A DNA stretch of 64,000 nt, taken from Roseibacillus ishigakijimensis (GTDB taxonomy: Bacteria; Verrucomicrobiota; Verrucomicrobiia; Verrucomicrobiales; Akkermansiaceae). A program made the translations under genes and the position numbers. The notes under the pieces were generated by a model, which saw only the letters and a list, made by a program, of their open reading frames with translations, searched no databases and had not been told where the DNA came from. Positions within the stretch are counted from its first letter, which is position 1. Every line of letters starts with the position of its first letter. The DNA lies in assembly GCF_016595415.1 (NCBI RefSeq), contig NZ_JAENIO010000015.1, positions 1 through 64,000 on the forward strand. The letters are read 5' to 3'. Shown here piece by piece: positions 16,610 to 62,268 of this stretch.

Positions 16610-16764
16610 AGCCCCAGTCTCGATCCTACCCCCTCCCGCAACAACTTCTTTCTGGGTTCATTGATGCCATGGCCTTGCCACCCCTCCTTCCCAAAGGGGA
16701 AAATTTGTGCTACTTCCAACCTCATCAACGCCAGCTCTCCCAGCTTTGGCCTCTGGCCCACCAC

Positions 16765-17856
16765 ATGAGAAGACTTAAGAACATAACGATTAGAGGATTA
16801 AAGTCCATTCGAGAGCAAACTCTTGAGCTTGACAAACTCAACGTATTTATAGGCGGCAATGGAGCAGGGAAATCGAATCTTGTCGGTGCCTTCCAATTGC
16901 TTCACGAGGTCGTGAATCAGCGTCTCACAGACTATTCCATCGCCCGAGGAGGAGCATCCAGCCTCTTTCACTTCGGACGAAAAATCACTTCCGCTATCGA
17001 AATCGAACTCAGCTTGCGGCTCTCTAACTCTAGCGTTCTTGACTACAAGCTCCAAATCGAGGCTACGGATGAAGGCCTCTTATTCGTCAAAAATGAGGAA
17101 GTCAATAAGCAGGCCGACGGAAGTGACAACGGAATTATTCTGCCAAATTCTCGCCTTGAATCGCGTATCAAAGACGACCGTGATCCTCTCTCCAAGCAGC
17201 TATTTTCCTCTCTCGACAGCTTTCGGGTCTACCATTTCCACGACACCAGCGAAACGGCAGCTGTGAAAGGTCATTGCGCAGTCGAAGACAACCGGCTCCT
17301 TCGTCCCAGAGCCGAGAACTTGGCCGCCTATCTTTACTTTTTGCAACAGAAACACCCTGAACATCTTGCTCTCATTGAGGACACGATTCGTCAGATCGCA
17401 CCTTTCTTCGATGGATTCCGGCTCGCGCCCTCCCGCTTGAACGAAGACAAGATTCGACTCGAATGGCAAGAGAAAGGGCAAGATGGCTATTTCAATGCCA
17501 CCGCACTTTCCGATGGCACCCTGCGGTTCATTTGCCTGACCACCCTCCTCCTCCAACCTGAGGAGGATCTGCCCACCGTGCTCCTACTCGATGAACCCGA
17601 ACTCGGCCTCCACCCCGCCGCCGTCGCCTTGCTGGCGGATTTACTCTCTTCCTGTGCCGAAAAGTGCCAGGTCATCGTCGCCACCCAGTCAGTCACCCTC
17701 ATCAATCAATTGCATCCGGAACAGGTTTGGACCGTTGATCGCGAGAATGCGCAAAGCGTCTTCCGCCAATTGAATGAAAACAGCTACCGACAATGGCTCG
17801 ATGATTATTCGCTCGGAGAGCTGTGGGAAAAGAACCTCCTCAACGCCCGCCCCTGA
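16765..17856 (+). CDS. AAA/OLD-like ATPase of a two-gene defence-type module
   Basis: A 363-residue SMC/RecF-like AAA ATPase (AAA_21 type). Walker A GGNGAGKS at residues 30-37, Walker B LLLDEPE with D276-E277, and a downstream switch-like ATQS motif around 300. The family couples ATP hydrolysis to a partner nuclease or effector. The start MRRLKN is where similarity to AAA_21 begins; the longer frame to 16669 adds an unconvincing 32 residues. The stop TGA shares its A with the ATG of the DUF4276 gene. The first 450 bases are AT-richer than the neighbours, a possible sign of acquisition. Role in phage defence is inference from the pairing. Confidence 0.82.
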   Translation: MRRLKNITIRGLKSIREQTLELDKLNVFIGGNGAGKSNLVGAFQLLHEVVNQRLTDYSIARGGASSLFHFGRKITSAIEIELSLRLSNSSVLDYKLQIEATDEGLLFVKNEEVNKQADGSDNGIILPNSRLESRIKDDRDPLSKQLFSSLDSFRVYHFHDTSETAAVKGHCAVEDNRLLRPRAENLAAYLYFLQQKHPEHLALIEDTIRQIAPFFDGFRLAPSRLNEDKIRLEWQEKGQDGYFNATALSDGTLRFICLTTLLLQPEEDLPTVLLLDEPELGLHPAAVALLADLLSSCAEKCQVIVATQSVTLINQLHPEQVWTVDRENAQSVFRQLNENSYRQWLDDYSLGELWEKNLLNARP

Positions 17857-18518
17857 TGAAGCGCTGCCTCATCATTACCGAAGGACAAACCGAGGAGCGT
17901 TTTATCAAAGATCTCCTCGCTCCCTACTTTCTCACTCTGGAGCTCGCGGTCACTCCCACCATCCTAAATACCAAAGTTGTAAAAAGCGGCCAAAATTTCA
18001 AGGGAGGGGTCACCAGCTACCCGCGATTGCGACGGGACATATCAAAATGCCTTGGTGACTCGAGCGCCCTGCTCACGACTTTCATCGACTACTACGGCCT
18101 CCCCGATGACGTTCCAGGCATGGAGAACCGACCACAGGGAAGCGCGCTGGACCGAGTGAGGCACGTCGAAGCAGCTATCAGGCAAGATTTTGGCAACCCT
18201 GCAAATTTCAAACCCTTCCTAATGCTACATGAGTTTGAAGCCTTCCTCTTCTGTGATTGCCAAATCACCGCGACCGCGGCTCTCCAGGGGGGGCAAGCGA
18301 GAGAGTTGGAACGCGCAGCGGGAGAACGATCACCCGAAGAAATCAATGAGCGGCCCGAAAGCGCTCCCTCCAAGAGAATTCTGCAAATATTCCCCGCATT
18401 CCGCAAAACTCTTCACGGGCCTACTGCAGCCAAACGTATTGGACTGGAAACGCTCAGACGAAAATGTCCTCACTTCGATTCCTGGTTGAGCGACCTCGAG
18501 AACTTTGCCCGACCCTAG
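17856..18518 (+). CDS. DUF4276 (TOPRIM-like) protein, partner of the upstream ATPase
   Basis: A 220-residue DUF4276 protein. The family pattern is clear: ITEGQTEE at residues 7-14 (E9, E13), a DYYGLPDDVPGM stretch around 70-82, LHEFEAFLF near 122-130, and an INERPESAPSKRI stretch near 165-180. The EGxTE start and later acidic residues resemble TOPRIM nucleases of the RloB/OLD class, so it may be the nuclease or effector of the pair; that is inference. The ATG at 17856 overlaps the ATPase stop by one base, which decides the start over the longer frame from 17823. ATPase plus TOPRIM-like gene is the architecture of class 2 OLD, PARIS and AbiL-type abortive infection systems. Confidence 0.82.
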   Translation: MKRCLIITEGQTEERFIKDLLAPYFLTLELAVTPTILNTKVVKSGQNFKGGVTSYPRLRRDISKCLGDSSALLTTFIDYYGLPDDVPGMENRPQGSALDRVRHVEAAIRQDFGNPANFKPFLMLHEFEAFLFCDCQITATAALQGGQARELERAAGERSPEEINERPESAPSKRILQIFPAFRKTLHGPTAAKRIGLETLRRKCPHFDSWLSDLENFARP

Positions 18519-30808: not shown

Positions 30809-33037
<2,229 letters not shown>

Positions 33038-33070
33038 TTTCTTACCTCATCATCAGCCCCGAATCCTCCG

Positions 33071-34423
33071 ATGAAACTCCGCGGATGCCTCTTGAAAGAC
33101 CTGCCACCCTTTGGGGAGCAGGCCATGGAATTCCCGGAGCTTCCGGCGGGGGCCCAAGGGGCTGAGATTCACTTCATCACCGGCGTCAACGGTGCGGGAA
33201 AGACGCGGTTTTTGAGTGTCTTGGAAGCGGCGTTGGGGAATTCAAGTGATCTTGATGCAAGGACTAAAGATCGTGCCAGTGTTGGAGTTTGGGGACAGGT
33301 TGACGATTTTGATGAAAATGATCCAACCTACCGATGGTCAAACGGTGCCACCCTCCTCAAAACTACGTTGGGATTCAACTTTAACAAAAACGAACCTGAT
33401 TTCTCGGCGTTTCGCGAGCATCAAATCGGCGATGAAGTTGTCGACTCACAACTAATAATTAATCCAACAACCGGTAGAAGAATTCACAAACTTGATTTTT
33501 CTATTATCGAAGGAGTTTTCGCTCTTTCCTTCCGCGGTAGCCTGAAAATCACCAACTCGTCCATTCAAGCACAAGCCCCAGTTAAGCTTGGCTCGCTAAC
33601 AGACCACCTCTCCTTAAACCAAAGGCCCGAGGGCGAGTCCCAGATGATCGCGCAGGCGCTGGCGAACATCGTTTCGATGGGGTCACAGGAGGTGATGCAA
33701 GAAATCACCGATGGACGCTACGGGGCCCTTCTCAAGAAAGTGAACAAGGTCCTAGGCGACTTTCTCAAGCGCAAGACCGCTTTTTTCGTCGATAGCCGAC
33801 GGGAAAGAATCGCGCTCAAGGTCCTTCTCGGCTCCGAACGCATCGACCTCGATCATCTCCCCGACGGCTTGCGCTCGATCATTGCCTGGCTCTTTGCCAC
33901 CATCGCCAAGCTTGAGGTGGCTTTTCCCGATGATTCGGACCCACTGGAGCGCGAGTTTATCATGATTCTCGATGAGCCGGAGACCCACCTCCACCCGGCT
34001 TGGCAACGCTACGTGCTCCGCATTGCACAGGAGCTTTTCCCCAATGCCCAGTTCATCGTAGCCACCCATTCCCCTTTCATCATCTCCAGCATCAACCGCG
34101 GTTGGATTCACATCCTCAACACCTGTGAGGACGACGGTCTCGTCTACTTCGGTGAACCCCAGCCGTGTAGCGAAGGCGACACCTACATGGATGCGGTGGA
34201 AGATGTCCTGGGGATCAAAGAACTCTACGATCCGGAAACCGAAGACCTCCTCGCCCAGTTCCGGGAACTGCGTCAGCAAGTTCTCAGCAACGGCTTTGAG
34301 GGGGAAACCGAATTGCGCAGCTTAATGATGAAGATTGGAGCGCGCAGCAAGTCACTGGAAAATATGATGGGGCGCGAACTCTTCCAGCTCGACAAAGCCA
34401 AGCAAATGGCGGCGGCGTCATGA
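33071..34423 (+). CDS. Septu-like defence ATPase (PtuA-like)
   Basis: A 450-residue AAA_21-type ATPase. Walker A GVNGAGKT at residues 38-45; Walker B FIMILDEPETHLHP with D301-E302; a following FIVATHSPFIISS switch motif. Immediately downstream, sharing an ATGA, is a small HNH nuclease gene; this ATPase-HNH pair is the composition of the Septu anti-phage system (PtuA/PtuB). The stretch 33235-33610 (about residues 55-180) is clearly AT-richer and uses different codons than the flanks, hinting at acquisition or domain replacement. Assignment to Septu rests on architecture; similar pairs occur with retrons, but no reverse transcriptase is present. Confidence 0.8.
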   Translation: MKLRGCLLKDLPPFGEQAMEFPELPAGAQGAEIHFITGVNGAGKTRFLSVLEAALGNSSDLDARTKDRASVGVWGQVDDFDENDPTYRWSNGATLLKTTLGFNFNKNEPDFSAFREHQIGDEVVDSQLIINPTTGRRIHKLDFSIIEGVFALSFRGSLKITNSSIQAQAPVKLGSLTDHLSLNQRPEGESQMIAQALANIVSMGSQEVMQEITDGRYGALLKKVNKVLGDFLKRKTAFFVDSRRERIALKVLLGSERIDLDHLPDGLRSIIAWLFATIAKLEVAFPDDSDPLEREFIMILDEPETHLHPAWQRYVLRIAQELFPNAQFIVATHSPFIISSINRGWIHILNTCEDDGLVYFGEPQPCSEGDTYMDAVEDVLGIKELYDPETEDLLAQFRELRQQVLSNGFEGETELRSLMMKIGARSKSLENMMGRELFQLDKAKQMAAAS

Positions 34424-35025
34424 GAAAGCAAGTCCGCCCCCCAGCCCCCGACGTCTTCCAGAAGCACGCCGACTCTTGGAACGCCCGCTGGGTGGCCCTG
34501 CGAGCGAAGAACCCCAGCGCCCGCTTCAGTTGGTATTCGGCCGAGGGCCAAACCGCCCGCGACTGGGCTTTGCCCGCTCTCAAGGTAATGAATCAGGGGC
34601 ACTGCTCATTCTGCGACAACTTTCCTCTGGATGCTGGCGATCACCCAATCGAACACCTTCGCCCCAAAACCCATCCTGACTACCAGCACTTGGCCTATGC
34701 TTGGGAGAATCTCTACTACTGCTGCACCACCTCCTGCAACGGCTTCAAGCGGGAGCGATTCGACGAGGAGGTTCTCAGCCCTGACGCGGACGATTTTGAG
34801 CCTTTGCGCTACTTCTATTTTGACACCACCACTGGCGAAGTATTGCCACACCCGTCCGCCTCGGCAGCGAACCAAAAGCGAGCGAAAGTCACCATCGACC
34901 TCTTTGGACTGAACAAAGACGAACGCCCCAAGCTCCGCCGCTTGGAAATCCAAAAATGGGCCGGACAGCAAGAGAACAGCAACTTAAACGTGGACGATTT
35001 TGGCTATCGTGAGTTTCTGGCCTGA
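34420..35025 (+). CDS. HNH endonuclease of the Septu-like pair (PtuB-like)
   Basis: A 201-residue protein. It shows the HNH/zinc arrangement of PtuB/TIGR02646 proteins: CSFC (C62, C65), HPIEHLRPK (E78, H79 as the core His), then WENLYYCCTTSCNGFK with N97, C102/C106, N107. The four cysteines probably bind a structural zinc around the beta-beta-alpha metal nuclease site. In Septu systems the ATPase and this nuclease form a complex that degrades DNA during phage infection. It starts inside the last codons of the ATPase gene (ATGA). The pair sits between housekeeping genes for IDH and IMPase. Confidence 0.8.
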   Translation: MRKQVRPPAPDVFQKHADSWNARWVALRAKNPSARFSWYSAEGQTARDWALPALKVMNQGHCSFCDNFPLDAGDHPIEHLRPKTHPDYQHLAYAWENLYYCCTTSCNGFKRERFDEEVLSPDADDFEPLRYFYFDTTTGEVLPHPSASAANQKRAKVTIDLFGLNKDERPKLRRLEIQKWAGQQENSNLNVDDFGYREFLA

Positions 35026-35103
35026 AAGCGCCCCCCTTTTCCCCGACATTCTTTCGGCAAGGCCGGGGTTTGCAAAAGCGGTCGTTCCTGATAAGCCCGC
35101 TCT

Positions 35104-35853
35104 GTGAGCTATCTCGATACTGCCATTGCCGCTGCCAAGGACGCGGGCCAACTCCTGCGCGACCACTTCCATGCCGATAAGAATGTGGACGAGGCCCTCC
35201 ACCACGACCTCAAGCTGGAGCTGGACCGCAAGTCCCAGGACCTCATCTTCGACCGCATCGCGCAAGACTTTCCCGACCACGCCCTCTACGGCGAGGAGGG
35301 CCTGGGCGGCAACCAGCAGTCGGAGTTCCAATGGATCGTGGATCCCATTGATGGCACGGTGAACTTTTTCTACGGCATCCCCCATTTCTGCGTCTCCATC
35401 GCCATGCGCCAGGGCGACGAGATTCTGGTGGGCGTGATCTACGACCCCATGACGGGAGAGCTGTGGACGGCGGAAAAAGGAGGCGAGGTCCTTCTCAATG
35501 GCCAGCCCCTGCGGGTGAGCAAGCGCGAGAAGCTGGAAGAAGCCATTGTCTTCATCGGTTGCGGCAAGGATGAAGAAGCGCTCAAAATCGGTCTCGAACG
35601 CTTTCGCAAGGCCTCCCTGCGCTGCCGCAAGATGCGCATGATGGGGAGCGCCGCCCTCGGGATGGCCTACACCGCAGCGGGACGACTGGACGCCTATGTG
35701 GAATCCCGTATTTCGCTCTGGGACATCGCGGCGGGCAAGCTGATTCTCGAAATGGCGGGCGGTTCCTGCGAACTCGTGCCCAATGCAGAGAACCCCGACA
35801 TTTACGCCATCAAGGCCAGCAACGGCCTCATTCCCATCGACGAAGTGCTTTAA
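35104..35853 (+). CDS. Inositol monophosphatase family protein
   Basis: A 249-residue Mg-dependent phosphatase. Metal-binding motifs are clear: GEEG (E about 63), the DPIDGTVNF signature (about 82-90) and SLWDIAAG near the C-terminus (about 204-211). Members include inositol-1-phosphatase/SuhB, 3'(2'),5'-bisphosphate nucleotidase (CysQ) and histidinol phosphatase; the sequence alone does not separate these. GTG start at 35104. The stop codon is followed directly by the ispF start, so the two form an operon. Confidence 0.9.
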   Translation: MSYLDTAIAAAKDAGQLLRDHFHADKNVDEALHHDLKLELDRKSQDLIFDRIAQDFPDHALYGEEGLGGNQQSEFQWIVDPIDGTVNFFYGIPHFCVSIAMRQGDEILVGVIYDPMTGELWTAEKGGEVLLNGQPLRVSKREKLEEAIVFIGCGKDEEALKIGLERFRKASLRCRKMRMMGSAALGMAYTAAGRLDAYVESRISLWDIAAGKLILEMAGGSCELVPNAENPDIYAIKASNGLIPIDEVL

Positions 35854-35856
35854 GTG

Positions 35857-36372
35857 ATGTTTAAGAAAATTGATTCTGACCCGACTTGGATCCCGCTGGT
35901 GGGCACGGGCTACGATGTCCATCAGTTTGCCGAAGGACGCCCGCTCATCCTCGGTGGGGTGGAGATTCCGCACACCCACGGACTCCAAGGTCACTCCGAT
36001 GCCGACGTGCTCTCCCACGCCATCGCCGACGCCATTCTAGGAGCGGTGGGCCTGCCCGATATCGGCCACTACTTCCCGCCGGGCGACCCGGATTGCGCCG
36101 GCATTTCTTCCCTGAAGATTCTCCAGAAAGCAGCTGAACTGGTGCGGGAGCAGGGGGGACGCTTGTGCAATGTGGACTCCGCCCTGGTGGCCGAGGCACC
36201 CAAGGTTCTGCCCCACGCGGCGGCGATGAAGGAAAACATCGGAGCGGCTCTCGGGCTCTCCCCCACCCGCGTCGGCATCAAGGCCACCACCAACGAGACC
36301 ATGGGCTTCGTCGGTCGTCGCGAAGGCATCGCCGCCCTCGCCAGCGCCAGCGTGCTGATGCCGGAGGACTAA
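35857..36372 (+). CDS. ispF: 2-C-methyl-D-erythritol 2,4-cyclodiphosphate synthase
   Basis: A 171-residue enzyme of the MEP isoprenoid pathway, cyclising CDP-ME 2-phosphate to MEcPP with release of CMP. The signature TGYDVHQF (zinc ligands Asp and His) is near residues 16-24, followed by GHSDADVLSHAIADAILGA and IGHYFPP. ATTN-E-MGFVGR-EG-IAA at the C-terminus is also conserved. ATG 35857 is used; a GTG directly before it (35854) is possible. Convergent with the RND permease gene with a 22-base gap. Confidence 0.96.
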   Translation: MFKKIDSDPTWIPLVGTGYDVHQFAEGRPLILGGVEIPHTHGLQGHSDADVLSHAIADAILGAVGLPDIGHYFPPGDPDCAGISSLKILQKAAELVREQGGRLCNVDSALVAEAPKVLPHAAAMKENIGAALGLSPTRVGIKATTNETMGFVGRREGIAALASASVLMPED

Positions 36373-44562: not shown

Positions 44563-45231
44563 TTATTCGCCGGCGGATTGTTCGTCCGTTTCGGCGGGAG
44601 TTTCTTCGCCAACCGCCTCTTCAGCGGGAGTTTCCTCTTCAGCGGGAGTTTCCTCTTCAGCGGGAGTTTCCTCTTCAGCGGGAGTTTCCTCTTCAGCGGG
44701 AGTTTCCTCTTCAACCGGAGCTTCCTCGGTCGCTGGGGTTTCTTCCGCAGCGGGTGCTTCTTCTTCGGCCGCAGTTTCCTCAGAGATAGGAGCTTCTTCC
44801 GCAGCAGGAGTTTCTTCTTCAGCCGCAGGTGCGGTGGCGGTCTCGATGGCCTCCAGAAGTGCGTCTTCCTCACTGCTCAAATCGATGGTAGCGGGAACCT
44901 CCGGCGCGGGGGCCGCAGATTCCTCACCAGCCACGGGCTTGAGAGTGGTGAGCCCCTGGGCCTTGTTGGAGCGGCCTACCAGGATGCCCAAAATCAGGCT
45001 GAAAAGGAAAAAGAGAATACCCAACACCACGGTGGACTTCTGCAGGAAGCTCGTGGTGCCAGCTCCGAGCAGCTGGTCGGTCATGCCGCCCCCGAAGGCC
45101 GCGCCGAGGCCTTCCTGCTTGGGACGCTGCATCATGACAACGAGAATCATGAGAAGACTGATCACCACCAGAGCGATGATGAGGAGAGTGATGGCAATAT
45201 TGAGGCCTGTTGAAGCGGCTACCAGAGTCAT
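44563..45231 (-). CDS. secG: Preprotein translocase subunit SecG with long acidic tail
   Basis: A 222-residue protein. Residues 1-90 are a normal SecG: two membrane helices with the conserved QRPKQEGLGAAFGGG loop between them. SecG assists SecYE in Sec-dependent export. The remaining 130 residues are an unusual Glu/Pro/Ala/Thr tail with five exact repeats of the six residues encoded by an 18-bp minisatellite, then similar degenerate units; the tail is strongly acidic and probably disordered and cytoplasmic. The start MTLVAAS is taken because a good promoter lies directly upstream; a longer frame to 45387 has no homology. Confidence 0.93.
   Translation of the reverse strand: MTLVAASTGLNIAITLLIIALVVISLLMILVVMMQRPKQEGLGAAFGGGMTDQLLGAGTTSFLQKSTVVLGILFFLFSLILGILVGRSNKAQGLTTLKPVAGEESAAPAPEVPATIDLSSEEDALLEAIETATAPAAEEETPAAEEAPISEETAAEEEAPAAEETPATEEAPVEEETPAEEETPAEEETPAEEETPAEEETPAEEAVGEETPAETDEQSAGE
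44623..44712. repeat. 18-bp minisatellite in secG
   Basis: Five perfect tandem copies of an 18-base unit (AGCGGGAGTTTCCTCTTC on the plus strand), followed by degenerate units to about 44830. In the secG frame each copy encodes six residues of the type TPAEEE. Copy number is likely to vary between strains. Confidence 0.95.
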
Positions 45232-45240
45232 GGGCGGCGG

Positions 45241-45269
45241 ACTATGGGTAAGGGATCTGGAGTTGTCAA
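45241..45269 (-). promoter_or_regulatory. Sigma70-like promoter of secG
   Basis: On the minus strand TTGACA (45264-45269) and CATAGT (45241-45246) are 17 bases apart. The ATG of secG (45231) lies only nine bases after the -10 box, so the mRNA would be leaderless or have a leader of a few bases. Confidence 0.55.
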
Positions 45270-45422
45270 AAGAAGTTTCACGCAATGCGATGGCGGCGCA
45301 ATACGGGCGGAGAAAGGGACCAGGCCCGGACCCGATGTGGAATGGATAAGAACTTGAGCCAAGCTTTTCACTTTTCGCACGTATCATCCTATGCCAGATT
45401 TTACTGAATCGATTTTTAACCC

Positions 45423-58883: not shown

Positions 58884-60500
58884 TTACTCGGCGGTCACCG
58901 CGGCGCGATCGTCATCGAGCCCACTCTTCTCCAGGAAGTAGTCATAGCCCCCGGCATAGCGAGTGAGGGTGCCGTTGTTGACGTGCAAGGTGGTCTCCGC
59001 CAGCGAGCGGATGAAGTGCACATCGTGGGAAATGAAGACCAGGGTGCCGGTGTAATTCTTCAATCCCTGCACCAGCGCATCGATGGAATTGATATCGAGG
59101 TGAGTTGTGGGCTCGTCCATCAAGAGCAAATTGGGCGGATCGACCAGGAACTTGACCAGATTCAGGCGCGACTTCTCGCCCCCGGAGAGAACCCGCACCC
59201 GCTTGTCGACATCGGCCCGGCGGAAGAGGAAGGAGCCCAACACGGCACGCACTTCGTCTTCTGCCAAGGTGGTGTTGGCTCCCATCACTTCATCGAGCAC
59301 GGTGTTGTCCTCATTCAAGGAGTCCACCCGGTGCTGGGAGAAGTAGCCCATCTTGGTGAGGTAGCCAATCTTGCGCTCCCCGCCCGCGAGGTCGAGGTGC
59401 CCGGCGATGATTTTCAGCAGAGTCGACTTACCCGCCCCATTGGGACCCACGAGCACGATTTTTTCGCCTTTTTCCAAGACCAAATCGAGACCGTCGTAGA
59501 TGACCTTGTCGCCGTAGGCCTGCTTGACCTTCTCCAGCTCCACGAGCTTCTGGTTCGGCCGCGGCGGCTCGGGAAAATTGAATTTGAACACTTTGCGCGG
59601 AGCCCGGGGCTTCTGCATCTTGTCCTTCATCTTATCAAGCTGCTTCATGCGGTCCTGCACCTGCGAGGCCTTGGAGCCGACATTGCGGAAGCGGTCGATG
59701 AACTCCTGCACCCGGTCCATCTCCTTCTTGTGATTGCGCCAGGCCTGCATCTTCTGCTCGTAGCGTTCCTTGCGCTGCTTTTGATAAGAAGAATAATTGC
59801 CGGTGTAGCTGACTAGCTCCATGGCTTCGGGGTCGATCTCGACCACTTGCTCCACGAGCCCGTCCATGAAGTCGCGGTCGTGGGAAATCATTAGAATCGC
59901 ACCGGGATAGTTGCTCAAGTAACGCTGGAACCAGAGCAAGGACATGAGGTCGAGGTGGTTGGTGGGCTCGTCCATCATGAGGAGGTCGGGCTCCATCACG
60001 AGGAGGCGCGCGATGTGGGCCCGCATGACCCAACCGCCGGAGAATTCCCGCGCAGGCTTCTCGAAGTCCTCTTGCTTGAAGCCGAGACCGGCGAGGATCT
60101 TCTTCGCCTTGGGCTCCAAGGCATAGCCATTGAGCTCGTTGAAACGGTCCTGGGCCTTGGCGAACTCCGGGGTATCGAGCTTGCCCGAGCTCTCGCCCTC
60201 GCGGATAGCGCGCAAAATGGAGACCATCTCATCATCGATCCCCATCGCAATCTCAAGCACGGTCTCATCGGTCGGATCGCCCGCTTCCTGGGCGAGAAAG
60301 CCCATAATGGCGTATTCGTCGCGATCCACGGTGCCCTCGTCCATCGGTTCTTCGTCGAGGATGATCTTGAAGAGGGTGGACTTGCCCGCGCCATTGGGAC
60401 CGACCAGGGCCACGCGTTCGCCCCAGTTCACGGTCAGATTGGCTTCGCGAAAGAGCGTGCGCCCGCCCATGGCCTTGGTGAGATTCTTGATGGTCAGCAT
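58884..60500 (-). CDS. ABC-F family ATP-binding protein (EttA/YbiT-like)
   Basis: A 538-residue protein with two ABC domains and no membrane segments. First Walker A GPNGAGKST at about 34-42; its signature region reads FSGGW; second half with GPNGAGKST again and LSGGEKSRLN and MDEPTTHLD. The inter-domain linker is the charged helical P-site tRNA interaction motif typical of ABC-F translation factors. Start at ATG 60500 (MLTIKN), since the frame upstream to 60686 reads through non-homologous sequence. ABC-F proteins regulate ribosome activity or give antibiotic protection; which applies is not evident. Confidence 0.93.
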   Translation of the reverse strand: MLTIKNLTKAMGGRTLFREANLTVNWGERVALVGPNGAGKSTLFKIILDEEPMDEGTVDRDEYAIMGFLAQEAGDPTDETVLEIAMGIDDEMVSILRAIREGESSGKLDTPEFAKAQDRFNELNGYALEPKAKKILAGLGFKQEDFEKPAREFSGGWVMRAHIARLLVMEPDLLMMDEPTNHLDLMSLLWFQRYLSNYPGAILMISHDRDFMDGLVEQVVEIDPEAMELVSYTGNYSSYQKQRKERYEQKMQAWRNHKKEMDRVQEFIDRFRNVGSKASQVQDRMKQLDKMKDKMQKPRAPRKVFKFNFPEPPRPNQKLVELEKVKQAYGDKVIYDGLDLVLEKGEKIVLVGPNGAGKSTLLKIIAGHLDLAGGERKIGYLTKMGYFSQHRVDSLNEDNTVLDEVMGANTTLAEDEVRAVLGSFLFRRADVDKRVRVLSGGEKSRLNLVKFLVDPPNLLLMDEPTTHLDINSIDALVQGLKNYTGTLVFISHDVHFIRSLAETTLHVNNGTLTRYAGGYDYFLEKSGLDDDRAAVTAE

Positions 60501-60567
60501 TTGCGGGCGCAACCATGCGAATCTTTCCCCACCTTTCAACCCTTGATTCGTCTTTTGGATGGGAAAA

Positions 60568-62268
60568 TCACTTTCCCTTTGAAAAGCTGAAGGACTTTGT
60601 CTCTGGCTGGGAAGAGAGAACAAGATTGCCTTTTCCCATTCGATAACGGCGGCGAAGCCACCAGCAAGAGCCATGAACCACAGCAATTATCGCCGAGGCA
60701 ACAAGCAGACACCAACTCCCGTCCATCCGCCCTTGCAGCCAGCGCGTCGCGTTCAACAAGAAGAGCAGAAGGAGGGCCCAAGTCATGAGGAAGTAGCCCC
60801 ACTTAGCAGTATGGCTTTTGATTCGATCCCGGGGTGAATCCGGGAAGGTCTCGCAATTCAACCAGAGATTGAAAGTCCAAATAATCTGAGGACGGACCAG
60901 CGCCCACGACAACAAGACGACGAGAAACAGTTCCAACCACCCGTCGCCCCAGCGAAAAATGCCGAAAGCACTCACAAAACCCAAGGTCAGAACCTGAGGC
61001 ACAAGGAACAGAGCAAACCGGAAGTAATACTCCTTGAGGAACATGCGGAAGATTTTCTTCTCCGAGATCGGAAAGAGCGCCAGTAAAGTCACCTCTCTCA
61101 TCCCCCCGGCAGAAAGCCTGCGGAAGGCCATCTGACACACCCCAGAAGGACTCGAACCGTTCATCATGCACAAAGTGATCCACCAAGAACTAGAAAAAGA
61201 AAAATCCCGCATCGAAAAATAGTCATAGTCTCCAATAAAGTCGGTCATTGAAAGTCCCCGAACCGCCGCAGCCAACCACAACCCACCAATCACCAGAGCG
61301 AAGAAAAGAGAGCAGACGAAGGCGCCCGACAACGGTCGAAACCAAAGAACCTCCCCGAGTTCCCGTTCCTCTTTCGAAAGGACCAGATTCAACGGGCGCG
61401 AACCCCAGCTGGGCTTCGGCCCTTGTCTGTTCAGTCCCACTGCTGTAGCGGCTTTCTCACCGACCGCTTCTTCCCGAGCTCCTGCGGCGGCCAGCCCAGT
61501 CCAAGTATCGAGCAGACGAAAATTCCTTTTCATTCGTCCCCAGAGAAGCACGGTGCCCACAACGACTAGAAGAGACAAGAACGGCCCCAAGAGCCCTGCC
61601 TCCAGCCACCGGGACGGTGCAAAGGCAAGTAAGCGTGACAACCAAACAGACTCATCCCAATCGCGCCAAGGATCGGCGAGTTGCAAAATCGGCAAAAAGA
61701 AAGACAACACCCCCAAGAGAAGTCCTATCCTGAGCCAAGGAATCCGACTGAGCCCCTTGCGCAAAAACTGCCAGGAGATTCCGAGCAAGGGCCACAGGAG
61801 CCAGCCCAATCCGCGAAGCCAAGCTTGCCCAAAAGACATCGGGCTGGAGACGAAGAGCAAGACCGCCAACAGAACAAAGCCAACCAGAAAGAGAGGCACT
61901 TTCCAAAACGAATACTTCCAGACTGCGCGATCACTGACGGGCAGTTGAGAAAGCACCTGCCCATGACGAGGAATGAGCAAATGCGAACCGACTAAATGGG
62001 AAGCTATCCCCGCCCCCACCAGTCCGACCGCCAAAAGGCGCAGGCTCCCGATGGCTTCTCCTGACTCCAAAAAAACCAGCAGACTAAAGAAAAAGAGAGC
62101 AAGAACCCCGGTTCCGTAGAGCGGGACACGCAACAAGAGGCCAAGCCGTCTTCGATACCGGAGCCACAGACCTCCCTCGGCAGGCACTCCCCGAGCCTGC
62201 TGGAGAGCGGCTTGGCGAAACCTCGCCTCGTGCTCTCTATTGCGAAATTGAAACGGCCCCCAGTTCAT
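60568..62268 (-). CDS. ABC transporter permease-like membrane protein
   Basis: A 566-residue protein with a soluble basic N-terminus (about 1-45) and about 11-12 hydrophobic segments. It lacks a recognisable domain name but is located 20 bases downstream of an ABC ATPase gene, so it is most likely the membrane part of that transporter, resembling the multi-helix permeases of ABC-2 type exporters. Substrate unknown. Its last residues are charged and rich in Ser/Lys. Confidence 0.65.
   Translation of the reverse strand: MNWGPFQFRNREHEARFRQAALQQARGVPAEGGLWLRYRRRLGLLLRVPLYGTGVLALFFFSLLVFLESGEAIGSLRLLAVGLVGAGIASHLVGSHLLIPRHGQVLSQLPVSDRAVWKYSFWKVPLFLVGFVLLAVLLFVSSPMSFGQAWLRGLGWLLWPLLGISWQFLRKGLSRIPWLRIGLLLGVLSFFLPILQLADPWRDWDESVWLSRLLAFAPSRWLEAGLLGPFLSLLVVVGTVLLWGRMKRNFRLLDTWTGLAAAGAREEAVGEKAATAVGLNRQGPKPSWGSRPLNLVLSKEERELGEVLWFRPLSGAFVCSLFFALVIGGLWLAAAVRGLSMTDFIGDYDYFSMRDFSFSSSWWITLCMMNGSSPSGVCQMAFRRLSAGGMREVTLLALFPISEKKIFRMFLKEYYFRFALFLVPQVLTLGFVSAFGIFRWGDGWLELFLVVLLSWALVRPQIIWTFNLWLNCETFPDSPRDRIKSHTAKWGYFLMTWALLLLFLLNATRWLQGRMDGSWCLLVASAIIAVVHGSCWWLRRRYRMGKGNLVLSSQPETKSFSFSKGK

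What the first reader, a model, noticed from the sequence alone, without database searches (positions are those of the whole stretch)
33071..35025. Septu-like ATPase/HNH pair inserted between housekeeping genes
Seen: AAA_21-type ATPase and a small C4-HNH protein with an ATGA overlap; the ATPase segment 33235-33610 is much more AT-rich than the flanks. Known: PtuA-PtuB pairs form the Septu anti-phage complex. The location between idh and imp/ispF suggests an insertion in an otherwise conserved neighbourhood, and the AT-rich insert may be a replaced recognition region.
Basis: partly seen in the sequence, partly recalled or inferred. Interest (0 to 1): 0.6.

Follow-up and report, generated by a model that had tools for sequence, protein, structure and literature searches.

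The report
Septu-type phage defence gene pair
A two-gene bacterial immune cassette of a known type (Septu: an ATPase plus a small nuclease) sits between two housekeeping genes in one Verrucomicrobiota genome, apparently acquired from elsewhere; it is an ordinary member of a known kind with one unusually AT-rich, fast-changing segment.

Summary
The pair is real: ptuA 33071-34423 (450 aa) and ptuB 34420-35025 (201 aa), with an ATGA overlap. Both match Septu models over nearly full length (PADLOC PtuA 8.6e-70, PtuB 1.5e-55). PtuB passes the TIGR02646 cut-off (65.2 against 52.15 bits). All 50 listed PDB fold matches of the PtuA model are PtuA. No reverse transcriptase or known RNA family lies nearby, so it is a stand-alone Septu, not a retron.

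The pair is sporadic: 13 of 337 genomes of the order, absent from all three congeners, with different neighbours wherever read. The "conserved neighbourhood" claim fails: idh and imp are adjacent in none of the relatives, and in the three congeners other genes fill both sides. The pair lies at a synteny breakpoint.

The AT-rich stretch is real. GC3 is 0.33 over codons 57-152 and 0.71 elsewhere, the strongest contrast of 39 long ORFs. It covers a segment that is hypervariable and gap-rich across 18 PtuA proteins; 15 of 17 relatives also have lower GC3 there. A variable sensor or partner-binding segment is plausible; replacement by recombination is not shown. New member of a known kind; low interest.

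The parts
33071..34423 (+). ptuA: 450-aa ABC/AAA_21-type ATPase of Septu; Walker A GVNGAGKT (38-45, K44), LPDGLRS (263), Walker B MILDEPE (D301), ATHSP (331)
   Evidence: PADLOC PtuA 8.6e-70 over 1-445; PDB PtuA profile match 2.4e-35; all 50 listed fold matches are PtuA
33239..33526 (+). AT-rich segment of ptuA (codons 57-152, GC3 0.33 against 0.71 outside), coinciding with the hypervariable, gap-rich segment of the family; residues 77-147 predicted with low confidence
34420..35025 (+). ptuB: 201-aa HNH nuclease (TIGR02646); C62/C65/C102/C106, H79, N97; overlaps the ptuA stop by ATGA
   Evidence: TIGR02646 65.2 bits, cut-off 52.15; PADLOC PtuB 1.5e-55; alignment
33038..33070 (+). 33-bp gap between idh stop and ptuA start; the terminator-like hairpin plus T run that follows idh in congeners G001 and G003 is not present here
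   Evidence: sequence; no sigma-70-like promoter found in 32700-35400
35026..35103 (+). 78-bp gap between ptuB stop and imp start; DNA similarity to the congeners begins only at the imp start (35087-35111)
30827..33037 (+). flank: monomeric isocitrate dehydrogenase (idh)
   Evidence: PF03971, 1277.9 bits
35104..35853 (+). flank: inositol monophosphatase family gene (imp), followed by ispF 35854-36372
   Evidence: PF00459, PF02542

Best explanation
A stand-alone Septu (PtuA-PtuB) anti-phage system, acquired horizontally as a compact two-gene cassette. Most likely mechanism (inferred by homology, not shown here): PtuA subunits bind ATP and assemble with PtuB into a complex held inactive in healthy cells. 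Infection changes the nucleotide or ligand state of PtuA, and PtuB then cuts nucleic acid so that the phage cycle fails. The target may be tRNA, as in retron-Eco7 and Septu EcB88 (my estimate about 50%), or DNA, as reported for the E. coli ATCC25922 Septu (about 35%). The AT-rich, hypervariable part of PtuA between the Walker A region and the next conserved strand is the likeliest place for trigger or partner specificity, and it may have been exchanged more often than the rest of the gene.
For: Near full-length PADLOC PtuA and PtuB matches. TIGR02646 above its curated cut-off. Residues shown essential in Septu EcB88 (PtuA K43/D316, PtuB H75/N91; PMC13096335) have counterparts K44/D301 and H79/N97. 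Profile and fold matches to solved PtuA and PtuB. The genome's single RVT_1 match lies on another contig and no Rfam family is found in 25-45 kb. Sporadic distribution, varied neighbours, and GC below the flanks in all seven loci compared. Published tRNA-Tyr and DNA targets: PMC13096335, PMC11555353.
Against: No activity is shown. ptuB has a CX3C instead of a CX2C second zinc pair, unlike the eight other PtuB proteins aligned. No promoter-like site was found; expression by read-through from idh is assumed. The target (tRNA or DNA) cannot be told from sequence.
Confidence: 0.88

Rival explanations
1. It is the effector pair of a type I-A retron whose reverse transcriptase and RNA lie elsewhere or were lost.
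For: PtuA and PtuB show clear similarity to the retron Ec78 models (NF041760 8.6e-33, NF041761 3.6e-17), and PtuB is closer by profile to Ec78 PtuB than to the stand-alone 8ee7 PtuB.
Against: Scores are far below the equivalog cut-offs (114 of 500 bits, 62.9 of 150). PtuA lacks the roughly 65-residue N-terminal extension of retron PtuA and aligns end to end with the stand-alone 8ee4. The genome's only RVT_1 match is on another contig inside a 602-codon frame. The relatives also show no reverse transcriptase beside the pair (ORF lists, read by eye, not profile-searched).
Confidence: 0.05
2. The AT-rich segment is a recent replacement of a recognition module by recombination with an AT-rich donor (mosaic gene). 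This concerns the history of one segment and is compatible with the best explanation.
For: Sharp GC3 step (0.33 against 0.71). Identity to the closest relative drops from 63% outside to 33% inside, with a 35-residue part missing in the relative.
Against: The same segment is variable in all relatives, and 15 of 17 have lower GC3 there (sign test p = 0.002), so a dip is family-wide and needs no recent event. No donor, and no sister gene with a different middle, was found.
Confidence: 0.3
3. The idh-ptuAB-imp order is an assembly artefact: the pair is real, but the junctions are joined wrongly.
For: The order is unique among the genomes checked, and the genome is in 192 contigs.
Against: The contig is 84 kb long with the pair well inside it. 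No long repeats at the junctions would mislead an assembler. Reported contamination is 0.01%.
Confidence: 0.06
4. A decayed or inactive Septu relic.
For: One extra residue in the second zinc pair of PtuB (CX3C).
Against: Both frames are intact, the catalytic residues are kept, and Ec78 PtuB also has an enlarged spacing in this place (alignments).
Confidence: 0.06

Closest known systems
Stand-alone Septu of E. coli, PtuAB (PDB 8ee4, 8ee7, 8eea)
   Same: Stand-alone ATPase plus HNH pair; PtuA of similar size (450 against 465 aa), aligned end to end by profile
   Different: PtuB similarity weak and mostly C-terminal (1.5e-7); the variable segment is unrelated in sequence
Retron Ec78/Eco7 effectors PtuA-PtuB (type I-A; PDB 9kjx, 9l7p, 9nnb)
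   Same: Same ATPase and TIGR02646 nuclease families; best fold and PtuB profile matches
   Different: Retron PtuA has an N-terminal extension and works with reverse transcriptase and msDNA; none is near here
Septu EcB88 (PMC13096335)
   Same: Two-gene Septu; its essential Walker and HNH residues have counterparts here
   Different: tRNA-Tyr cleavage shown there, not here; sequence not compared directly

Membership tests
Septu (PtuAB) | PtuA-family ATPase with Walker A and B | tested here: met
   PADLOC PDLC00281 8.6e-70 over 1-445; K44 and D301 present
Septu (PtuAB) | PtuB HNH nuclease of TIGR02646 next to PtuA | tested here: met
   TIGR02646 65.2 bits, cut-off 52.15; ATGA overlap; H79/N97
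Septu (PtuAB) | PtuA fold as in solved structures | tested here: met
   Model pLDDT 76.7; all 50 listed PDB matches are PtuA, E 1e-16 to 6e-12; TM-scores are moderate (about 0.5) and rmsd large, partly from the low-confidence segment
Septu (PtuAB) | Oligomeric PtuA-PtuB complex and anti-phage activity | not testable with these tools
   needs experiment
Retron type I-A | Reverse transcriptase and msr-msd RNA adjacent | tested here: not met
   No Rfam match in 25-45 kb; the only RVT_1 match of the genome is on contig C149
Retron type I-A | Retron PtuA/PtuB equivalog scores (NF041760, NF041761) | tested here: not met
   114 of 500 and 62.9 of 150 bits

The most novel reading that the evidence does not exclude
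The hypervariable, AT-rich segment after Walker A in PtuA is an exchangeable specificity module (trigger sensor or partner-binding), swapped between Septu systems by recombination while the ATPase core and the nuclease stay, comparable to target-recognition domains of restriction enzymes.
Probability: 0.2. Interest if true: 0.5.

Novelty: new member of a known kind. Interest (0 to 1): 0.2.

Why it matters
It adds a Verrucomicrobiota branch of stand-alone Septu with a clear cassette-like spread. If the variable segment of PtuA is the sensor, as its variability and composition hint, it would give a place to look for what triggers Septu. Otherwise it is one more copy of a known system.

Tried and rejected
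The genome-contig scan with A1 used poor peptide patterns and returned one close relative and one weak one; the viral-contig scan gave none. Plasmid and phage tblastn gave only partial, distant ATPase matches, so no carrier element was found. No tRNA in the window and none near idh or imp in the congeners as an attachment site, and no direct repeats at the pair's ends, so a site-specific integration footprint was rejected for this pair. The pilin-like gene upstream of imp in G001 was not found in the window's own genome, so that side of the rearrangement could not be traced. The main structural papers on PtuAB (PMC12318543, PMC12240667) are not held.

Full report
What is there. Two ORFs lie head to tail at 33071-34423 (450 aa) and 34420-35025 (201 aa) with an ATGA overlap. 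They are single copy in this genome. The left neighbour is monomeric isocitrate dehydrogenase (its stop 33 bp before ptuA) and the right neighbours are an inositol monophosphatase gene and ispF.

Identity. The ATPase matches PADLOC PtuA at 8.6e-70 over residues 1-445, and the small protein matches PtuB at 1.5e-55 over 1-200. The small protein passes the TIGR02646 curated cut-off (65.2 against 52.15 bits), while both are far below the cut-offs of the retron Ec78 PtuA and PtuB equivalog models. Pfam finds AAA_21 and AAA_15 in the ATPase and nothing in the HNH protein. A profile of 18 relatives matches solved PtuA structures, the stand-alone E. coli PtuA 8ee4 end to end at 2.4e-35. A profile of nine PtuB proteins matches Ec78 PtuB at 1.2e-15 and 8ee7 PtuB at 1.5e-7. 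The AlphaFold2 model of PtuA (mean pLDDT 76.7) has only PtuA entries among the 50 listed PDB fold matches.

Residues. Septu EcB88 needs PtuA K43 and D316 and PtuB H75 and N91 (PMC13096335). The window proteins have K44 in GVNGAGKT, D301 in MILDEPE, H79 in IEHLRPK and N97 in ENLYYC. PtuB has one residue more between its last two zinc-type cysteines (CX3C) than the eight relatives aligned (CX2C). Ec78 PtuB also departs from CX2C there (alignments), so this need not be fatal.

Not a retron. No Rfam match falls in 25-45 kb, and the only RVT_1 match in the genome is on another contig.

Distribution and insertion. Among 58 close genomes seven have a PtuA match, the window's own included and no congener; the HNH protein gives five. 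Class and phylum samples gave 3 of 384 and 3 of 388 at strict thresholds; the order sample with a profile gave 13 of 337. Where neighbours were read they differ at every locus. Pair GC is below flank GC in all seven loci compared, for example 0.548 against 0.603 here and 0.451 against 0.564 in G053, though the difference is small in some, and some other parts of the window are equally low. The pair is best read as a horizontally acquired cassette.

In the relatives that have both genes, idh and imp are never adjacent; the nearest pairs, in G011 and G023, are about 9.7 kb apart. In all three congeners the sequence 3' of idh and 5' of imp is present and filled with other genes, and similarity ends at the last codons of idh and at the imp start. 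The pair thus sits at a synteny breakpoint, and no empty idh-imp site exists in the data. In congener G001 the 3' side of idh holds a phage-integrase-family gene, a primase-polymerase-domain gene and a type I methyltransferase gene, so this side of idh appears to have received foreign DNA at least twice in the genus.

The AT-rich segment. The best-fitting segment is codons 57-152 (33239-33526) with GC3 0.33 against 0.71 outside. The log-likelihood gain on a coarse grid is 20.6, the maximum in 200 shuffles is 11.2, and it ranks first of 39 long ORFs; two other ORFs come close (17.9, 16.9), and some of these mechanical ORFs may not be genes. Across 17 relatives the homologous segment is gap-rich, with 9-33% aligned identity inside against 28-63% outside, and 15 of 17 have lower GC3 inside. 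The sign test gives p = 0.002, and GC3 correlates with column conservation (Wilcoxon p = 0.0008); relatives are not independent, so these values are optimistic. The model has low confidence at 77-147. So the dip is an extreme case of a family-wide property of a fast-changing segment. A role in sensing or partner choice is an inference; replacement by recombination is possible but not shown.

Mechanism. By homology, PtuA binds ATP and holds PtuB, and infection releases or activates PtuB. The reported targets differ: tRNA-Tyr for retron-Eco7 and Septu EcB88, and DNA for the ATCC25922 Septu (PMC11555353, PMC13096335). PtuB here is closer by profile to Eco7/Ec78 PtuB, a weak reason to prefer tRNA. 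All steps of this paragraph are inferred for the window's proteins.

Organism. A finer placement was not tested.

Verdict. A genuine, horizontally acquired, stand-alone Septu pair: ordinary, with a mildly interesting variable segment.

Noticed in passing
window 16669-18518: A second candidate defence pair, AAA_21 ATPase plus DUF4276 protein, matches PADLOC HEC-01A (1.2e-134) and HEC-01B (3.4e-72), also in a low-GC stretch (GC3 0.58-0.59 by ORF).
   Followed up: partly
L081 2401-8425 (congener G001, 3' of idh): Phage-integrase-family gene, primase-polymerase-domain gene and type I methyltransferase directly downstream of idh: an apparent integrated element at the same side of idh as the Septu pair here.
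   Followed up: partly
L087, L088, L092 (genome G053): One genome of the order carries three different PtuAB-like pairs at three places.
   Followed up: no
window 34723-34737: PtuB of the window has CX3C in place of CX2C in its last zinc pair; unique among nine aligned.
   Followed up: no
window 44563-45387 and 58884-60686: Two other ORFs with strong internal GC3 contrasts (log-likelihood gains 16.9 and 17.9); possibly not real genes.
   Followed up: no
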